Source: an uncultured Desulfobacterales bacterium (GTDB lineage: Bacteria; Desulfobacterota; Desulfobacteria; Desulfobacterales; G020354645). Taken from it: 6,716 nt of DNA. The notes below the pieces were generated by a model, which made no database searches, had not been told where the DNA came from, and worked only from the letters and a program-made list of their open reading frames with translations. Positions 1-6,716 of this stretch are shown piece after piece; the stretch's first letter is position 1; each line of letters opens with the position of its first letter. A program made the translations under genes and the position numbers. The stretch spans positions 1 to 6,716 of the forward strand of contig CAMYNZ010000207.1 of NCBI GenBank assembly GCA_947259865.1. The letters run 5' to 3'.

Positions 1-27
1 TGGTATCGGTGGTGGGTGGGCGGGGGG

Positions 28-552
28 TCAGGCGGGGGCGTGGTGGATGTTCTGCGCGGACTCGAGGCCATCGGTGACCAGGTCGCGGGTCGCGTCGGCC
101 GCACGGCGCACCGAGGCCAGGGCGTCGTCGAGCAGTGCCGGAGGGATCCTGGCGAGCACATAGCTGGCCGGTTCCTGACGCCCGGGCGGGCGCCCCACAC
201 CGATGCGAACCCGCAGGAAGTCCCGGCCGCCGCACCGGTCGATGATGTCGCGCACCCCGTTGTGCCCCCCGGGACCGCCGCCACGCTTCAGCCGCACGAC
301 CCACGCGGGAAGGTCGATGTCGTCATACACCACGACCAGATCGTCCAGCGACAGCTTGTAGAAGCGCAGCGCACGCTGGACCGGACCGCCCGAGTTGTTC
401 ATGTACCCGCCGGGCACGAACAGCGTGACCGGGCGGCCGCCGGCTCCGACGCGGCCATCGGCCGCTAAGCCACCGGCGCGGTGCCGCTTGAGCCGCAGCC
501 CGAGGTCGTCAGCCAGTGTCCGTACAGCGTCGGCGCCCAGGTTGTGGCGCTC
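28..552 (-). pseudogene. pth: pth, lacking its 5' end (peptidyl-tRNA hydrolase), in foreign high-GC DNA
   Basis: Pth releases tRNA from peptidyl-tRNA that drops off the ribosome, an essential cytosolic recycling step. This segment encodes about 172 residues, matching Escherichia coli Pth from His20 to its end. Visible active-site equivalents are the catalytic His of RHN (codon 544-546), the Asn of YMN, the Asp of VVYDDIDLP and the Asn of GGHNG; the Asn of the N-terminal GLxNPG motif is missing because MotA sequence replaces it. GC is about 72-73% in sampled 60-base blocks, far above the rest of the window. The GRPPGRxxPASYVL stretch and the high GC resemble actinobacterial Pth, so an actinobacterium or another high-GC donor is my guess. 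Pth normally sits beside rplY, ychF or prs and has no known link to motility genes. Confidence 0.85.
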
Positions 553-957
553 CTCTAAATATAATATTTCGGTTGACATAACCTCTTCAATTGACCGGCC
601 CTCCATGCCGTCAATGGCCATCTGTAACCCCTTGACTAGAAACGTGTCTTCAATTTGATCCAATTGGGACTCAAATGACAGTATTCCCTCCTGTCGGGCC
701 TTTTTGGCCAGACCGCCCATTACCGGGATGAGTTTGTAAGCCGATTGGGAGCGATGCAAAAATACATTCTTTACCACTCCGAAAACGCTAAACACATCCG
801 ACAGGGGATAGGCCAGGAGCGTGGCGCCCATCGTACCGCCAACGACAATCATCAGAGACGGATAATTGATGAACCAGGCAGCCGATCCCCCCATGAGGAT
901 CGAGCTGATTACCAGCCCGCCGGCCACAAAGATGCCGACAAGTGTTGCGATATCCAC
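28..957 (-). CDS. Chimeric reading frame: N-terminal half of flagellar stator protein MotA joined in frame to peptidyl-tRNA hydrolase (Pth)
   Basis: Residues 1 to about 137 are MotA. They start VDIATLVGIF, carry two hydrophobic helices (about 2-25 and 33-53, the second with the NYPSLMIVVGGT signature), and continue through the cytoplasmic segment with KKARQEGILSFE and LVKGLQMAIDG up to YLEERH. From RHNLGADAV onward the protein is Pth, with the family motifs YMNNSG, VVYDDIDLP, GGGPGGHNG and RVRIGVGRPPGR, ending SAQNIHHAPA. MotA helices 3 and 4, which complete the stator, are missing, as are the first roughly 19 residues of Pth, including the GLxNPG asparagine. A GTG start at 957 is preferred over TTG at 963 because AAGGAGG lies 6 bases before GTG but directly abuts TTG; MotA proteins also usually begin (M)DIATL. 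The frame is open throughout, but composition changes sharply at the joint. I infer an assembly chimera. A genuine fusion is possible but would be neither a complete stator nor a complete hydrolase. Confidence 0.85.
   Translation of the reverse strand: MDIATLVGIFVAGGLVISSILMGGSAAWFINYPSLMIVVGGTMGATLLAYPLSDVFSVFGVVKNVFLHRSQSAYKLIPVMGGLAKKARQEGILSFESQLDQIEDTFLVKGLQMAIDGMEGRSIEEVMSTEILYLEERHNLGADAVRTLADDLGLRLKRHRAGGLAADGRVGAGGRPVTLFVPGGYMNNSGGPVQRALRFYKLSLDDLVVVYDDIDLPAWVVRLKRGGGPGGHNGVRDIIDRCGGRDFLRVRIGVGRPPGRQEPASYVLARIPPALLDDALASVRRAADATRDLVTDGLESAQNIHHAPA
528..556. other. Composition breakpoint / probable chimeric joint
   Basis: On the minus strand the AT-rich codons for EILYL end at about 556 and are followed at once by GC-rich codons for ERHNLGAD. 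From here to position 1 the DNA is about 72% GC, while from here rightward it is near 47%. The exact joint cannot be placed because the peptide ERHNLGA is plausible for both families: MotA proteins have LEERHxxGA at this place and Pth proteins have xxRHNxGA. A short stretch of identical bases shared by two genomes here would be enough to mislead a k-mer assembler. Confidence 0.75.
553..957 (-). pseudogene. motA: motA, 5' part only (flagellar motor stator subunit A, truncated at the chimeric joint)
   Basis: This is the part of the chimeric frame that belongs with the flagellar cluster. MotA is an inner-membrane protein that forms, with MotB, the ion-conducting stator that turns the rotor. About 135 of an expected 250-290 residues are present: transmembrane helices 1 and 2 and most of the cytoplasmic loop that contacts FliG. 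The conserved proline and channel-lining residues of helices 3 and 4 are absent. Base composition (about 47% GC at 601-660) matches the flagellar genes. It lies 463 bases downstream of flgE, on the same strand, with its own sigma-54 promoter, so it is probably the first gene of a motA-motB unit whose remainder is not in this window. The 3' limit is uncertain by about 25 bases. I regard the truncation as a sequence-assembly effect and not as true gene decay. Confidence 0.8.
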
Positions 958-970
958 TCGCAACCTCCTT
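958..970 (-). promoter_or_regulatory. Ribosome binding site of motA, deciding a GTG start
   Basis: On the minus strand AAAAAGGAGG is followed by TTGCGA and then GTG. The Shine-Dalgarno core is 6 bases from the GTG at 957, a normal distance, but has no spacing to the upstream in-frame TTG at 963. This supports GTG as the start. Confidence 0.75.
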
Positions 971-1028
971 TTTAGGTTAACTGCAAGGCCAGGACCGCAT
1001 GGAATTTATTGTAATCAGGATGTATTTT

Positions 1029-1044
1029 AGCAATTATTGTGCCA
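1029..1044 (-). promoter_or_regulatory. Sigma-54 (RpoN) promoter for motA
   Basis: The minus strand reads TGGCACAATAATTGCT, matching the -24/-12 consensus TGGCAC-N5-TTGC with the diagnostic GG-N10-GC spacing exactly kept. Transcription would start about 12 bases beyond the GC, near 1018-1020, leaving a leader of about 60 bases before the motA GTG at 957. Sigma-54 control of middle flagellar genes through an enhancer-binding activator (FlrC/FleR/FlgR type) is established in several proteobacteria. The position suggests that motA is activated independently of the upstream hook genes. Confidence 0.85.
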
Positions 1045-1057
1045 CTGAATGGAATTA

Positions 1058-1196
1058 GCGGATAGGGGGTAAAACGTGCTATTGAATGCCGCGATAAGGG
1101 GATGCGTCTAAAGCGGGTGGGCCCAAATGCACGGTTATAATTAATTTTGCCCCGGGGGATGGTTATTTTTGGCAGGCACCCCTTGCGGATAAGGAA
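1058..1196. promoter_or_regulatory. Three similar GATA(A/G)GG boxes upstream of the motA sigma-54 promoter
   Basis: On the plus strand GCGGATAGGGGG (1058-1069), CGCGATAAGGGG (1090-1101) and GCGGATAAGGAA (1185-1196) share the core GATA(A/G)GG and a GCG-like left flank. The GATA cores begin at 1061, 1093 and 1188, that is 32 and 95 bases apart, close to whole helical turns. All lie upstream of the sigma-54 promoter, where activator sites are expected. They could be binding sites for the flagellar enhancer-binding protein, but no known consensus was matched and three short boxes may recur by chance. Confidence 0.3.
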
Positions 1197-1348
1197 TTTT
1201 GACGCTTGGTGTTGCCTGTAAAAAATGAGGTTGCCGTCAATTATTACCGCAGGTTGTCAAGTCTTTGACATCGGCCAGATCCGTTTTTAAATCGATTTCC
1301 TGGCAGAGACCCGTCTGCTTTCAGGCATTCAGTTGCGGGCAGCGGCAG

Positions 1349-1362
1349 GCAGGACGACCTGC
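1349..1362 (-). other. Small hairpin downstream of flgE
   Basis: A 5-bp inverted repeat, GCAGG and CCTGC around a 4-base loop, lies about 57 bases past the flgE stop. It has no following T-run, so it is not a classic intrinsic terminator; it may stabilise the 3' end of the flgE transcript or may be incidental. No better terminator was seen between flgE and the motA promoter. Confidence 0.25.
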
Positions 1363-1419
1363 ACGGCCTGGCGTCATCCTGCAATCTTCACAACCGCTAC
1401 CCCGAAACCTAGGGTGTCA

Positions 1420-2649
1420 TTACCGTTTAATGTTGATCAGCTCCGACAGTATTTCATCACTGGTTGTAATGACCCTGGAATTGGCCTGAAAGGCCCTCTG
1501 GGTGGTTATCATCTTGACAAATTCCTGGGCCAGATCAACATTAGACATCTCCAGCGTGCTGGGACTGATATTACCCAACCGGCCGTCTCCGGCTATTCCG
1601 GGCAGCGGTTGTCCCGAAGACAGCGTTTCCTGATACAGATTCTTACCCATTTTGGATAAACCGTAGTAGCTCGGAAAATCGGCCAGGGCAATCTGGAAAA
1701 GTGAGGTCAGCTGGCCGTTGGAATAAGAACCGGTGACAATACCGTCTTCATCCACCGTAATGCCCCGCAAAACCCCGGAGGGATAGCCGTCCTGAAGCTG
1801 AAAGGTGGTGTTGGAAGGCGATGCGTAACCCGTCATGTCACCGTTGTTGATCCCCAGTGAATCATACAGATCCCAGTTTATGCTCAAGGGCGTGGCGGCC
1901 CCGTTGGTCAATGTCATGGCCACAGCAGCGTCGCCTCCCGGTGCGGTCAAATCGCCGAGGGCGTCAAAAGTGACCGGAATGGAAGCACCCCCGTTTATGG
2001 TGACCCCGGGACCGGCTGAAGGGGGAATCGAACCCGCCGCACTCCAGGCGTTGATGCCGGTATTGGTAAAGGTAATGGTCAAGGGGATGGCATTGCCCAG
2101 GGAATCATAAACCGAAAATGAGGTGGCATAGGTATCCCCGATGGTGGCCCTTGCATCTAAATTGACATCCACCGAAAAATTGGCGGTCGGCTGGGGCGGA
2201 GAGATCCTTTGTCCGGGAACACTGATATCCATAACGGCCCCCAGCGAACCGCTGGGCAGAATCTCATAACCCTGGACATTCATGCCGTCCGGATTGACCA
2301 TATCCCCATCCTGATTGAAATAAAACTCTCCGGCCCTTGTAAAATAAGTGGTTCCGGAGGGATCGCTAACCAAAAAAAATCCCTTGCCGTTGATGGACAG
2401 ATCCGTGGGGCTGCTGGTATTTTCCAGGGAGCCCTGACTCCATAACGGGCTGGTTCCCCAAAATTCAACCCCCCGACCGATATCGTCACCCGAGGAGCCG
2501 GAAAGTGACTGGCTCAAAACATTGGCAAAGGCCGACCGGTTGGATTTAAATGCCGTGGTGTTGACATTGGCAATATTGTCGCCGATGACCGTCATGGCGG
2601 TGGCATTGGCATTCAGGCCTGATATTCCTGCAAACAATGAACCTATCAT
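1420..2649 (-). CDS. flgE: Flagellar hook protein FlgE
   Basis: FlgE polymerises into the hook, the flexible joint between rod and filament outside the outer membrane. The 409-residue product is close to the 402 of the enterobacterial protein. Residues 1-45 (MIGSLFAGISGLNANA, then GDNIANVNTTAFK) are the N-terminal rod/hook domain; residues 84-128 hold the hook-core signature INGKGFFLV...YFTRAGEF...NPDG..VQGY; the middle contains the FlaE-like surface domain with DSLGNAIPLTITF; residues 367-409 (EMSNVDLAQEFVKMI, then TTQRAFQANSRVI) are the C-terminal coiled-coil segment that packs against the N-terminus. There is no signal peptide, as expected for a substrate of the flagellar type III exporter. 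GAGGAGG lies 8 bases before the ATG. The gene follows flgD by 56 bases, so the two are probably co-transcribed. Length and the absence of a cysteine-rich or giant insert make this an ordinary FlgE. Confidence 0.96.
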   Translation of the reverse strand: MIGSLFAGISGLNANATAMTVIGDNIANVNTTAFKSNRSAFANVLSQSLSGSSGDDIGRGVEFWGTSPLWSQGSLENTSSPTDLSINGKGFFLVSDPSGTTYFTRAGEFYFNQDGDMVNPDGMNVQGYEILPSGSLGAVMDISVPGQRISPPQPTANFSVDVNLDARATIGDTYATSFSVYDSLGNAIPLTITFTNTGINAWSAAGSIPPSAGPGVTINGGASIPVTFDALGDLTAPGGDAAVAMTLTNGAATPLSINWDLYDSLGINNGDMTGYASPSNTTFQLQDGYPSGVLRGITVDEDGIVTGSYSNGQLTSLFQIALADFPSYYGLSKMGKNLYQETLSSGQPLPGIAGDGRLGNISPSTLEMSNVDLAQEFVKMITTQRAFQANSRVITTSDEILSELINIKR

Positions 2650-2667
2650 TTTATTTTCCTCCTCTTG
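2650..2667 (-). promoter_or_regulatory. Ribosome binding site of flgE
   Basis: The minus strand reads AAGAGGAGGAAAATAAA before ATG. GGAGG lies 8 bases from the start codon, supporting the ATG at 2649 as the true start of flgE. Confidence 0.7.
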
Positions 2668-2705
2668 ATGCCAGATTAAGGTCGTATTTATGTCGTCGTG
2701 CAGTA

Positions 2706-3374
2706 TTAGTCATCAATGGTCGATACCTTGATTACATCACCGATCGAAATTTCCTGATTTCCCGTAACCAGGTAGGTTATATTGTTCCGAAAGACCACGC
2801 CGCTAACGATCCCGGTTGTAAGTGCGGTCGCGTCTACCATCCGGTCATTGTAATCGACTGCCAGAACTTCAAAAGAGTAGGCACCGTCGGGAACCGAAAG
2901 GCCCTGACTGTCTTTTCCATCCCATTCCAGAACCTGGGCGCCGGCACTCAAGGCACCCCCTTCAAAAGTTCTGATAAAATTACCGTTGGGGTCATAAATG
3001 TTGACGGCCACAGCACTGGCAGCCCCTGCCAGCTCAAAATTGCATGCAACCGCAGCCCCGTCGTCCCGCTGAATTGTGTTGCCCGCAGCGATGATCTGTT
3101 TGCCAATGAGGGAAACCGCCTCCGTATTGTTGGCAGCGGCCGTGGCCAGCTTGAGATATTCAAGGTTGTCATTGACATTGCCAAGTTGTTCCAGGGAGCT
3201 GAACTGGGCAAGCTGAGCCGTAAATTCAGTGCTGTCCTGGGGGTTGAGGGGGTCTTGATGCTGAAGCTGCGTAACCAGCAGGGTCAAAAAATCATCCTTG
3301 CCGAGTATATTGGGCGCGGCTGCGGAAGCGGTATTGCCGCTTGGCCCTGCTGCGTCTAGTCCGACAACTGCCAT
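2706..3374 (-). CDS. flgD: Flagellar hook assembly (capping) protein FlgD
   Basis: FlgD forms the temporary cap at the tip of the growing hook and guides FlgE into place; it is later discarded and replaced by the hook-filament junction proteins. The 222 residues are a usual length. The conserved N-terminal export and cap region is at residues 26-72, with KDDFLTLLVTQLQHQDPLNP and FTAQLAQFSSLEQL, the family hallmark. Residues about 105-182 form the Ig-like domain, with LEWDGKDSQG at 149-158 and VPDGAYSFEV at 161-170, and the C-terminal residues complete the Tudor-like domain. AAAGGAGG lies 8 bases before the ATG at 3374. It starts 92 bases after fliK ends and is followed by flgE, the normal fliK-flgD-flgE order of many flagellar operons. 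Nothing is truncated or unusual. Confidence 0.96.
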   Translation of the reverse strand: MAVVGLDAAGPSGNTASAAAPNILGKDDFLTLLVTQLQHQDPLNPQDSTEFTAQLAQFSSLEQLGNVNDNLEYLKLATAAANNTEAVSLIGKQIIAAGNTIQRDDGAAVACNFELAGAASAVAVNIYDPNGNFIRTFEGGALSAGAQVLEWDGKDSQGLSVPDGAYSFEVLAVDYNDRMVDATALTTGIVSGVVFRNNITYLVTGNQEISIGDVIKVSTIDD

Positions 3375-3390
3375 GGGTTCATCCTCCTTT
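3375..3390 (-). promoter_or_regulatory. Ribosome binding site of flgD
   Basis: TTTAAAGGAGGATGAACCC precedes ATG on the minus strand. An ATG inside the site itself (GGAGGATG) is too close to the core to be used, so 3374 is the start. Confidence 0.65.
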
Positions 3391-3466
3391 AAACGTGTTC
3401 CGTTTTTCGGCTGGGTATGTTTTTCTTAAAAGCGTGTCCATTTTATTCGCTGTTACCTTTTGGTTT

Positions 3467-5446
3467 TCAGGCAAAATAATCAATCGCGTTATCACTGTTG
3501 CGTTCTCCCCCGTCAGCATTGGGTTGGTTCAGCTCTGTTGGCTCCCGGTTGTCCTTTCCGGATCTGTTACCCGCATTACTGCCCGCTTTTTGCGGGTCGG
3601 TCGGGTGATGCCCGCTGCCCTGCTGATGGGAATCCTTGGTTACGGATACATCCAGAGAGTTAATTTCCAGACCGTGATTCTGAAGATCGGCTTTAAGCTG
3701 GTAAATATTGTGTTCGATAATATCTTTAACCGCCGCAAATTCCGTCGATATTTTTAAGGTCACCTGATGATTTTCGGTAACTATCCGCATGTGAATCTGG
3801 CCCAGAAAATCCGGTTTTAGATTGAGCCTGAGTTCGGATTGCCCGTTTTTAAGCGTTAAGGCCGCCTTTTCAACAATTTGGCTCATCGTTGCGGTTCGGG
3901 AAAAATTGGCGGCAGGGTCACTATCTTTGGCAGACGAAGCGGTTTCGGAGAAATTTTCGGATCCCAGATGGTTTGAAATCAGGGTGGCTTTATCTCCGTT
4001 TTCGGGGATTATTTTGGTGGCCCTGGCGCCCGGATCTTCCATGGCAAATCTATCGGCAAGTTGGATCCGGGGCCCTGAATCCCTTAATTCACGCGGCTCC
4101 CTTTCGGCCTCTGAAGATGGACTTTCGGTCTCCGATGCAGGTGTCTGGATGGCAACACCCCGGGATACATCAGATCTTGCATCATCATTTTTGGGCGCCT
4201 GATCGTTCAATAGCTGGTTTTGGCGGTCGGTCGAAGGAGCGGCAGCAGTGGTGTTTAAATGGGTTGCAGGGGCATCTTTTCCGCGCGCTACGATTTCCCC
4301 GTCACTGGCTGGTTTTATCGGCTGGCTAACATCCAATCCGGATTTTGCTGCCTGATCCCTTTCATTATGACTGTCACCGGGAAGGGGAATGGTTTTTCCG
4401 GGAACGGATTCATAAAATTGAAAATCGTTGCTGATTTTAGGTGGATCAGTTGTCACATTTTCAGCCGGAATGCCGGCGGTTGCCCGGTTACCTTGCACTG
4501 ACGGGTTGTTTTCGACCCCATTTTGCCTGCCTTTCAAATGGGATAGGAGTTTTACTAAAAGGGCTTGCCCATATCGGCCAGGGTCGGAAACCGGTCCTTG
4601 CGGGTTGATGCCCGGTTCAGGCAATTGAAAATTGTCGTGCGAGGCTGGGGCTAGGGGCAGTGAACCGTCGGTCCGGCGCCAATGCATTAGATCCGAGATC
4701 AGTGTTTCCAATACGTCTTTTTGGTTAAATCCATCGGATAACACCGGGTCCGTCTTCGTCAATGGATCTGAGGGCTGGGGGCTTGGATTTGTTTTTAAAA
4801 AGTCTATGATCCGGTTTTTTAATACTGAAAAAAGCGTTGCAGCACCGGCTTCCGATCCGCCCGTTTGCTTTAGCGACCGAGTGGATAAATCCTTGACGGG
4901 CTTGTCTTTAGCCCCGTCAAGGATATTGAGTATTTGGTTTTTCAACTGATCAAACAGTATTTCGGTTTCAGCACCCGGCGTAGTTGTTTGTGAGACCGGA
5001 TCCAGGACCAGGGGGTCGCTATGGGCCACGGGTACAACCGGACCGACATCCTTTACAACACTGACGGCCGGGGCTCCGGCGTCAGCAGCTGCGCTGGCCG
5101 GACCGTTCCGGTTCTCGGTGTTTTGGAGGCCGGATGCAGAATTAATAAAAAAATTCAACCATTCAAGTTCTTCTCCAGGCCGGCCCTGCAGGATCGGTTC
5201 TGAATCAGGATTGGCTGTCAGCAGCGGGTCTTGTGCCATGCGCAGGGATTCAATCAGAGCGGAATTTAACCGGGATCTTTGGGGCTGATTGGCAATTTGC
5301 CTGAGAGTGGCCAGAAAAATTGAATCTTCCGCAAGCGTGCCTTTTTCTGCAGGCCCGGTAACGCTGCCGGGATCCTGAAATCCTTTTTTTACGGTCAAGG
5401 ACGAATCGTCGGATATCGATTGAAAGAATAATAAGCCGGTTTGCAT
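3467..5446 (-). CDS. fliK: Flagellar hook-length control protein FliK
   Basis: FliK is secreted through the flagellar exporter, measures the hook, and interacts with FlhB to switch export from hook to filament subunits. The 659-residue product has the usual design: a long, low-complexity, Pro/Ser/Asp/Asn-rich ruler part (about 1-510) and a conserved C-terminal domain at about 514-605 (Flg_hook), with LTLKNGQSELRLNLKPDFLG, IHMRIVTENHQVTLKIS and LQNHGLEINSLDVSV; then a charged tail of about 54 residues rich in Asn, Gly and Asp, possibly part of the switch function. The ATG at 5446 is chosen over the in-frame TTG at 5491 because AAGGAAAAAGGG places a ribosome site 7 bases before the ATG. It is larger than the 405-residue Salmonella protein, but FliK length varies widely. 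Identification rests on the C-terminal domain and on the neighbouring flgD and flgE. Confidence 0.92.
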   Translation of the reverse strand: MQTGLLFFQSISDDSSLTVKKGFQDPGSVTGPAEKGTLAEDSIFLATLRQIANQPQRSRLNSALIESLRMAQDPLLTANPDSEPILQGRPGEELEWLNFFINSASGLQNTENRNGPASAAADAGAPAVSVVKDVGPVVPVAHSDPLVLDPVSQTTTPGAETEILFDQLKNQILNILDGAKDKPVKDLSTRSLKQTGGSEAGAATLFSVLKNRIIDFLKTNPSPQPSDPLTKTDPVLSDGFNQKDVLETLISDLMHWRRTDGSLPLAPASHDNFQLPEPGINPQGPVSDPGRYGQALLVKLLSHLKGRQNGVENNPSVQGNRATAGIPAENVTTDPPKISNDFQFYESVPGKTIPLPGDSHNERDQAAKSGLDVSQPIKPASDGEIVARGKDAPATHLNTTAAAPSTDRQNQLLNDQAPKNDDARSDVSRGVAIQTPASETESPSSEAEREPRELRDSGPRIQLADRFAMEDPGARATKIIPENGDKATLISNHLGSENFSETASSAKDSDPAANFSRTATMSQIVEKAALTLKNGQSELRLNLKPDFLGQIHMRIVTENHQVTLKISTEFAAVKDIIEHNIYQLKADLQNHGLEINSLDVSVTKDSHQQGSGHHPTDPQKAGSNAGNRSGKDNREPTELNQPNADGGERNSDNAIDYFA

Positions 5447-5751
5447 CCCTTTTTCCTTGCTGTAGAGTTTGTATGAAATCGTTCGGGCCAATGTAATGCA
5501 GAGAGCATGCCAGAAATTTTGAACCCGATGACCCGGGGTTGGTATTTGGCAGGGGCTGTTTTAGAAAACGCCGGGAGGCCCCGGTAGATCGAACAAAATC
5601 GGACCTGTTACCCTGAATGCAACATTTGAAAATCGGAAATCGGGTCATTTCATTTGCCCCGGGCAGTCTCGAGGATGGGCAATAATTTCCCTTTCACGGC
5701 AAACTTTACCCGGCCGAAAATCACATCCCGTGTTAAGGGGGTATCGGGGTT

Positions 5752-5829
5752 ACCGGTAAAGGGTCGTAAATGCTGTCAGGTCTGTAACTGACCGGTAAGG
5801 GAGCCTTGAATGCTGTGCTGATGCTTTGG
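5752..5829. repeat. Degenerate 39-base tandem repeat, two units
   Basis: Both units begin ACCGGTAA and share AATGCTGT about 17 bases later: 5752-5790 and 5791-5829. Over the first 26 columns roughly 19 positions agree with one gap; the second halves have diverged. The first unit starts inside the perfect palindrome TTACCGGTAA (5750-5759), and the second begins with a near copy of it. Two ACCGGT palindromes spaced 39 bases apart could be paired protein-binding sites, or the remains of a duplicated stretch. Confidence 0.45.
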
Positions 5830-5903
5830 AAAGTGGGGGTTATGATCGAATGAAATAAGTGCTGAGTGATAGTTGCATGTTGCGGGCTAAAAGTTACGGG
5901 TTG

Positions 5904-5927
5904 AAAAAATGAACACGCAAACGCGTG
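5904..5927 (-). terminator. Weak candidate intrinsic terminator after fliJ
   Basis: On the minus strand CACGC-GTTT-GCGTG forms a 5-bp GC-rich stem, followed after TTCA by a run of six T. It sits about 80 bases past the fliJ stop. The short stem and the 4-base gap before the T-run make it weak. An alternative pairing (GCGT-GTC-ACGC) overlaps it, and the plus strand carries the direct repeat ACACGCAA at 5913-5920 and 5928-5935, so the site could instead be an attenuator or a protein-binding element. Confidence 0.3.
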
Positions 5928-6005
5928 ACACGCAACCCCTATCAGTTGCTTTTACAAATACATCCATACAGCCGTCCTGGCATTAGGCTGCTTTGGCAAA
6001 GTCGG

Positions 6006-6443
6006 CTATCCTTTTCGATTATGCTGATTCACAGCAATCTCGTTCATGAAATCCTGTTCCTTTTTTTGGGTCATTTGCCGGTATTCTTTTATTCCTTGGG
6101 CCTTTAATTTATCCAGGATTTTTCTTTTTTTCATGGCTTCTATCAAAGCCATTCGCATTTGGTCATTTTTCTTCTTGGCCGCCAGTACCCGTTGGCGTTG
6201 ACCTTCAATGTCCTTGGACAATCTTTGAATATAATCAACGTACACCCGTATCTCAGAAACGGAATTACCCTTCTTTTGTTTTTGCTGCAACTGGGTCCAA
6301 TATTTTTCTTTTTCGATTTTGTAATCCCTTAGTTTTTTCCTTTCATCACTCAGCAGCCGCTTTGACTCTGCTAATTCTTTCTGGCGAATCTCTTCGGTAT
6401 ATTTGCGGTGATTCAGAAGTGATTCCAGATTGAATTTATACAT
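6006..6443 (-). CDS. fliJ: Flagellar export protein FliJ
   Basis: FliJ is a small soluble coiled-coil protein of the flagellar type III export apparatus. It sits in the centre of the FliI ATPase ring, links it to FlhA and recycles export chaperones. The 145 residues equal the usual length of about 147. The start MYKFNLESLLNHRKYTEE fits the FxLexLLxhRk signature of the family, and the remainder is an almost unbroken, highly charged antiparallel coiled coil rich in Lys, Glu and Gln. The ATG at 6443 is the only possible start nearby because an in-frame TAA lies three codons upstream (TAA ACC ACC ATG). No Shine-Dalgarno site precedes it, unlike flgD, flgE and motA, so translation may be weak or leaderless-like. 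GC (about 37-43% in sampled blocks) is lower than in fliK. Unusually, fliI is not found immediately upstream. Confidence 0.92.
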   Translation of the reverse strand: MYKFNLESLLNHRKYTEEIRQKELAESKRLLSDERKKLRDYKIEKEKYWTQLQQKQKKGNSVSEIRVYVDYIQRLSKDIEGQRQRVLAAKKKNDQMRMALIEAMKKRKILDKLKAQGIKEYRQMTQKKEQDFMNEIAVNQHNRKG

Positions 6444-6657
6444 GGTGGTTTATAGGAGGTTTTAAGTTTTATGTTTTAAATTTTGTTACTCACAGATTAC
6501 TTTTGTGTCTCAATAACAAGAAAGTGTCACACCTACACTTATTCTTTAAATCGGTTTCTTTTAGAAACATTCCAATATTAATACAACCCACCTGCTGCCT
6601 TGAAATTTAATTGAGAATTTTAAAGACGACATCTTTATTTAACTAAAATTTTGGAGA
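6444..6657. promoter_or_regulatory. AT-rich divergent intergenic region upstream of fliJ with two inverted repeats
   Basis: About 214 bases at 22-33% GC separate fliJ (leftward) from the partial plus-strand frame (rightward), so promoters for either side could lie here. Two inverted repeats stand out: AGTGT-N7-ACACT at 6523-6539, which also contains the odd palindrome GTGTCACAC (6524-6532), and GTTTCT-TTT-AGAAAC at 6554-6568. Such sites could be operators. I found no GG-N10-GC sigma-54 site and no good sigma-28 site on either strand. A weak sigma-70-like pair for the plus strand is TTGAGA (6611-6616) and TTTATT (6634-6639), 17 bases apart. Confidence 0.4.
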
Positions 6658-6716
6658 ATGAAACTTATTAAAAACCCCGCCTGGGATGAATTTTCACACT
6701 ATTGGTATGCCTACAA
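6658..6716 (+). CDS. Possible 5' end of an unidentified divergent gene, cut by the window edge
   Basis: An ATG at 6658 opens a frame that stays open to the last base and reads MKLIKNPAWDEFSHYWYAY. A GGAG lies before it but only 1 base from the ATG, closer than usual, and an in-frame stop (6640-6642) lies just upstream, so this ATG would be the start if the gene is real. I do not recognise the 19 visible residues; they are rich in aromatic residues. It would be transcribed away from fliJ, making fliJ the first gene of its own unit. With so little sequence, a chance frame cannot be excluded. Confidence 0.35.
   Translation, partial: MKLIKNPAWDEFSHYWYAY

What the first reader, a model, noticed from the sequence alone, without database searches (positions are those of the whole stretch)
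28..957. In-frame MotA::Pth hybrid with a sharp GC step: most likely an assembly chimera
Seen in the sequence: one open frame begins with MotA helices 1-2 and ends with nearly all of Pth, and GC rises from about 47% to about 72% at the joint. Known: MotA needs helices 3 and 4, and Pth needs its N-terminal GLxNPG asparagine; both are missing here. Inference: two genomes were joined at a short shared sequence, and an in-frame result followed because the shared motif is in the same phase in both genes. If instead real, it would be an unprecedented membrane-anchored peptidyl-tRNA hydrolase. Any database entry derived from this contig would propagate a false fusion.
Basis: partly seen in the sequence, partly recalled or inferred. 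Interest (0 to 1): 0.7.

Follow-up and report, generated by a model that had tools for sequence, protein, structure and literature searches.

The report
Chimeric contig joining two bacteria's genes
What looks like a fused flagellar-motor and tRNA-rescue protein is almost certainly two ordinary genes from two unrelated bacteria, joined by mistake at a short stretch of sequence that both genes share, so it is an artefact rather than a new protein.

Summary
The minus-strand frame at 28-957 (GTG start behind AAGGAGG) joins the first part of a MotA in frame to a Pth that lacks only its first 21 or so residues. The MotA part is 97% identical to intact 258-aa MotA proteins; the nearest relative with an organism name (77%) is Desulfobacterales. 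The Pth part is 96% identical to an intact 194-aa actinobacterial-type Pth. There pth is intact, next to an L25 gene. GC steps from 72.2% to 50.6%. Both families have an R-H-x-x-G stretch at the joint, in the same codon phase, which explains the open frame. None of the 120 best proteins listed in each of three searches spans both halves. Reads were not available: an assembler error cannot be told from a library chimera, and a rare real recombinant is not formally excluded. Low interest: an artefact.

The parts
28..957 (-). Hybrid open frame, 309 codons plus stop, GTG start at 957-955 with AAGGAGG upstream (the frame is open to a TTG at 963)
551..957 (-). 5' part of motA (first two helices and part of the cytoplasmic domain; helix assignment recalled), GC 50.6%; Desulfobacterales type by its nearest named relative
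   Evidence: 97% to intact, unnamed P0001 and P0002, 77% to P0010 named Desulfobacterales; alignment A1; solved MotA chains match residues 3-134
28..550 (-). pth without its first 21 or so codons, actinobacterial, GC 72.1%
   Evidence: 96% to intact P0121; window 1-550 is 97% identical (534 of 550) to G028:C49, locus L003; GC
530..550 (.). Joint zone. Similarity to the actinobacterial genome ends at 550. Shared stretch between the parent genes: about 21 bases (530-550) if the MotA parent read RHNLGAE with the same codons, as few as 7 or 8 (544 or 543 to 550) if it read RHSLGSE. The true length is unknown because the MotA parent's DNA was not reached.
   Evidence: inference for the limits
1..27 (.). 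3' flank of the actinobacterial pth, also aligned with L003 but less alike (20 of 25 bases in 1-25)
1420..6443 (-). Flagellar genes on the motA side: flgE (1420-2649), flgD (2706-3374), fliK (3467-5491), fliJ (6006-6443)
   Evidence: Pfam matches

Best explanation
The record is a chimera of two genomes, most likely from one metagenome. A flagellar segment of up to 6.2 kb of a Desulfobacterales-type bacterium (fliJ, fliK, flgD, flgE, 5' part of motA) was joined, at about window 530-550, to a 550-base stretch of an actinobacterium related to Nitriliruptorales that carries the 3' part of pth. The joint lies where motA encodes E-E-R-H-x-L-G and pth encodes G-T-R-H-N-L-G. The short shared DNA (between about 7 and about 21 bases) has the same codon phase in both genes, so the result is in frame without any selection. 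The fused protein has no biological role. Shown: near-identical intact relatives of each half, a sharp switch point at 550 against the closest genome, intact pth there, no hybrid among the listed hits. Inferred: that the joint arose in assembly or library preparation and not in a cell, and that both genomes were in one sample.
For: MotA half 97% identical to two intact MotA proteins over 99% of the 134-residue query, then 94, 93, 86 and 88%. Pth half 96% identical to intact 194-aa P0121, longest contig 42,957 bp; that protein is encoded at 100% in genome G028. DNA identity with G028 is 97% over 1-550 (534 of 550), then falls from 24 of 25 to 5 of 25 bases at 550/551 and stays at 2-10 of 25 to base 800 (ungapped). 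In G028 the N-terminal part of pth is present and an L25 ribosomal protein gene lies upstream. Of 66 genomes of that class, 48 match window 1-963 as DNA and no listed match extends past base 550. The one MotA found in G028 is only 35% identical to P0001, so it is not the other parent. GC3 is 0.596 in the motA part, close to flgE (0.615) and flgD (0.570), and 0.861 in the pth part. Shared RH motif at the joint in both families. Of the 120 best hits listed in each of three searches, none covers both halves (largest coverage is 69%, by a 213-aa protein with a Pth domain only). PMC7299287 (passages seen) says that assembly graphs linked by shared k-mers can yield chimeric contigs; it speaks mainly of related species and of sequencing errors, not of distant phyla.
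Against: No reads, coverage or assembly graph could be examined. The DNA of the MotA parent was not reached, so the length of the shared stretch is not measured. The four closest MotA relatives read RHSLGSE, not RHNLGA, so the exact shared stretch may be as short as 7-8 bases, shorter than the k-mers assemblers usually use (recalled); that would favour a library or amplification chimera over an assembler error, or a real event. Mismatches to G028 are denser near the joint (4 in 501-528); the two that change a residue (D152, A146) give the family-consensus residue, so they look like strain differences.
Confidence: 0.95

Rival explanations
1. A real but non-functional recombinant: illegitimate recombination at a short shared motif put an actinobacterial fragment into the motA of a Desulfobacterales-type cell. 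motA is broken there and the fused protein does nothing.
For: Short-homology recombination exists (recalled). The frame is open through the joint. The sequence alone cannot exclude it.
Against: The pth part keeps a high GC3 (0.861) and 97% DNA identity to the actinobacterial genome, so the event would have to be recent. No hit listed is a second case. No search for repeats or mobile elements was made; the five proteins scanned and Rfam show none.
Confidence: 0.035
2. A real, functional membrane-anchored peptidyl-tRNA hydrolase in which two MotA helices tether Pth to the membrane.
For: The frame is open, has a start with a ribosome-binding site, and keeps the Pth segment from the histidine onwards.
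Against: The hybrid lacks the N-terminal Pth segment with GLGNP and MotA_ExbB. No relative with this architecture is among the listed hits. Codon composition is unmixed.
Confidence: 0.01
3. One organism carries both DNA types, for example an actinobacterium that acquired a flagellar cluster by transfer, and the joint is an assembly error within one genome.
For: MotA-like genes occur in the class: MotA_N matches in 24 of 66 genomes, 14 over the cut-off, including G028.
Against: G028's MotA is 35% identical to P0001 and G027, G029 and G030 have no match; window DNA from 551 to 963 is in no listed match of 66 genomes. Of the nine listed MotA relatives with an organism name, eight are Desulfobacterales, Deltaproteobacteria or Thermodesulfobacteriota.
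Confidence: 0.005

Closest known systems
MotA, flagellar stator protein (PF20560 + PF01618; P0001, P0002)
   Same: The N-terminal part is 97% identical; same GTG start as P0001; flagellar neighbours flgE, flgD, fliK, fliJ
   Different: Everything after the E-E-R-H motif, including the MotA_ExbB domain, is missing
Pth, bacterial peptidyl-tRNA hydrolase (PF01195), actinobacterial type (P0121, G028)
   Same: Residues 138-311 are 96% identical, and window 1-550 97% as DNA
   Different: The first 21 or so residues with GLGNP are missing and replaced by MotA sequence
Chimeric contigs of metagenome assemblies (general phenomenon; PMC7299287, passages seen)
   Same: Sequence from two genomes in one contig, joined at a shared stretch
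   Different: The passages speak mainly of related species; here the sources are distant, and the joint happens to keep a reading frame open because both genes encode a similar short motif

Membership tests
MotA | N-terminal MotA domain (PF20560) | tested here: met
   24 bits, profile 1-91 of 91; intact P0001 scores 26.1, both below the 27.3 cut-off; solved MotA chains match residues 3-134 at E 2.2e-20
MotA | MotA_ExbB channel domain (PF01618) with the last two helices | tested here: not met
   absent in the hybrid, 103.5 bits in P0001
Pth | Pth domain from its first position (PF01195, 183 positions) | tested here: not met
   profile 12-181 in the hybrid, 1-181 in the intact L003 protein
Pth | N-terminal GLGNP segment with the active-site asparagine (role recalled) | tested here: not met
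   present in the eight Pth sequences aligned, absent in the hybrid
Pth | Histidine of the R-H-N motif and asparagine of GHNG (roles recalled) | tested here: met
   H140 and N235 invariant in the nine-sequence alignment; the match to 2PTH begins at R139 = chain position 19 (table)
Chimeric contig | Two parts with different closest relatives and a sharp switch | tested here: met
   on the MotA side by protein only, as the parent's DNA was not reached
Chimeric contig | No or uneven read support across the joint | not testable with these tools
   no reads are held

The most novel reading that the evidence does not exclude
A real recombinant gene that makes a membrane-tethered peptidyl-tRNA hydrolase, using the first two MotA helices as anchor.
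Probability: 0.01. Interest if true: 0.6.

Novelty: not a real feature. Interest (0 to 1): 0.06.

Why it matters
As biology it does not. As data hygiene it does: an annotation pipeline would report this as one 309-311 aa protein with two domains, and it would pass an in-frame check. The case shows how a short peptide motif shared by two unrelated families (R-H-x-x-G) can make a chimera look like a clean gene fusion.

Tried and rejected
The scan of genome contigs with P0121 gave only two distant loci, but one of them led to the class in which the close genome was found. A scan of viral contigs for the MotA parent found none. A plasmid search gave five records, with weak matches to window 155-406 or 257-372 only, inside the pth part. 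So no Desulfobacterales DNA was reached and the MotA side rests on proteins only. Rfam at gathering thresholds gave 0 matches in the window. A paper search for such a fusion (at least 3 of the terms peptidyl-tRNA hydrolase, MotA, fusion protein, chimeric; 935 papers, 12 listed) showed no title about it among the 12; I read none of them. A search on chimeric contigs (35 papers, 12 listed) led to PMC7299287, of which I saw passages only. A search on chimeric reads and microhomology (25 papers, 10 listed) gave nothing used here. Sequencing error as the cause of the mismatch cluster at 501-528 was considered less likely than strain difference, because the window's residues D152 and A146 agree with the family consensus. 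No structure prediction was run, as the fused protein is taken for an artefact.

Full report
Observation. The minus-strand frame exists as described. It is open from 963 to 28; the likely start is the GTG at 957-955, behind AAGGAGG, which is also where the closest intact MotA starts. Pfam gives MotA_N at residues 8-93 and Pth at 135-306, counted from 963. GC is 72.2% in 1-550, 50.6% in 551-963 and 50.1% in 551-6443; the eight best GC change-points within 1-963 lie between 538 and 555. GC3 is 0.596 for the motA part, 0.615 for flgE, 0.570 for flgD, 0.498 for fliK, 0.445 for fliJ and 0.861 for the pth part.

Relatives, protein level. Residues 1-134 searched alone gave 565 proteins, 120 listed. 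The best two are intact 258-aa MotA proteins at 97% identity. Nine of the 120 listed do: four Desulfobacterales, two Deltaproteobacteria, two Thermodesulfobacteriota, one Bacteroidia; the nearest of them is P0010, Desulfobacterales, at 77%. Residues 138-311 searched alone gave 1412 proteins, 120 listed. The best is an intact 194-aa Pth at 96%, without a name; the four listed with an organism name are actinobacterial, the nearest at 87%. The listed lengths are 187-297 aa on the MotA side and 184-238 aa on the Pth side, and the precomputed domains of the 240 are MotA-type or Pth, never both. The whole hybrid as query gave 3500 proteins from the 7997 best candidates, 120 listed; the largest coverage is 69%, by P0134 with a Pth domain only. 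The unlisted hits were not seen.

Relative, DNA level. Through a named relative (L001, Nitriliruptorales MAG, 55%) I reached the 66 genomes held of its class. Window 1-550 matches G028:C49 at 534 of 550 bases without a gap, and the match ends at 550. Bin by bin, agreement is 20 of 25 in 1-25, 22-25 of 25 from 26 to 550, then 5, 7, 4, 4, 2, 7, 10, 4, 6 and 5 of 25 up to base 800. In G028, pth is complete with its N-terminal GLGNP part, and upstream lies a ribosomal L25 gene. With window 1-963 as DNA query, 48 of 66 genomes match and no listed match passes base 550 (at most 7 candidates per genome were scored). G028 has one MotA match of its own, 35% identical to P0001, so the window's motA does not come from that genome.

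Why in frame. At the joint, 117 of 120 listed MotA relatives have RH.LG(A/S)(E/D); of 120 listed Pth relatives, 120 have RH..G and 53 have RH.LG(A/S)(E/D). The window reads E-E-R-H-N-L-G-A-D: E-E as in MotA, N-L-G-A-D as in Pth; the R-H codons can be from either parent. A joint inside a motif that both genes encode in the same phase keeps the frame by construction. If the MotA parent read RHNLGAE (2 of 120 listed relatives do) with the same codons, the shared stretch would be about 530-550 (21 bases); if it read RHSLGSE as the four closest relatives do, about 7 or 8 bases ending at 550. These limits are inference, because the DNA of the MotA parent was not reached.

Mechanism. Most likely an assembly or library artefact. 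PMC7299287 (passages seen) describes shared k-mers and sequencing errors as sources of chimeric contigs, mainly for related species. A shared stretch of about 21 bases would suit an assembler with small k (recalled); one of 7-8 bases would suit template switching or ligation in library preparation better (recalled). The foreign arm is only 550 bases long and lies at the edge of the window, as one would expect if a single chimeric fragment extended the contig, but I do not know whether the window is the whole contig. A real recombinant cannot be excluded without reads; I give a non-functional one 3.5% and a functional fusion 1%.

Function if real. The fused protein lacks the MotA_ExbB domain and the Pth N-terminal GLGNP segment, so it should be neither a stator nor a normal hydrolase. 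It keeps the Pth histidine at the joint (position 20 of chain 2PTH by the match coordinates).

Verdict. Observation confirmed, first interpretation supported. Not a real feature; low interest.

Noticed in passing
window 6444-6716: The other end of the window is AT-rich (30.8% GC against 50.1% for 551-6443) with stops in all six frames, and no fliI lies upstream of fliJ, where one would expect it (gene order recalled). A short plus-strand frame starts at about 6660 and runs off the end. It could be a native intergenic region or a second foreign end.
   Followed up: partly
window 6006-6443: fliJ has lower GC (38.6%, GC3 0.445) than the other flagellar genes, and is separated from fliK by 514 bases in which no frame of 80 aa or more lies wholly.
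   Followed up: no
window 964-1419: 456 bases between flgE and motA; the only listed frame of 80 aa or more there (1333-1659, plus) overlaps flgE.
   Followed up: no
G028:C144:1904-2632 (L009): The genome that carries the close pth has its own MotA-like gene, 35% identical to P0001; 24 of 66 genomes of the class have a MotA_N match, 14 over the cut-off.
   Followed up: partly
window 501-528: Four mismatches to G028 in 28 bases just before the joint, denser than in the rest of the arm; the two that change a residue agree with the Pth family consensus, so strain variation is likely.
   Followed up: partly
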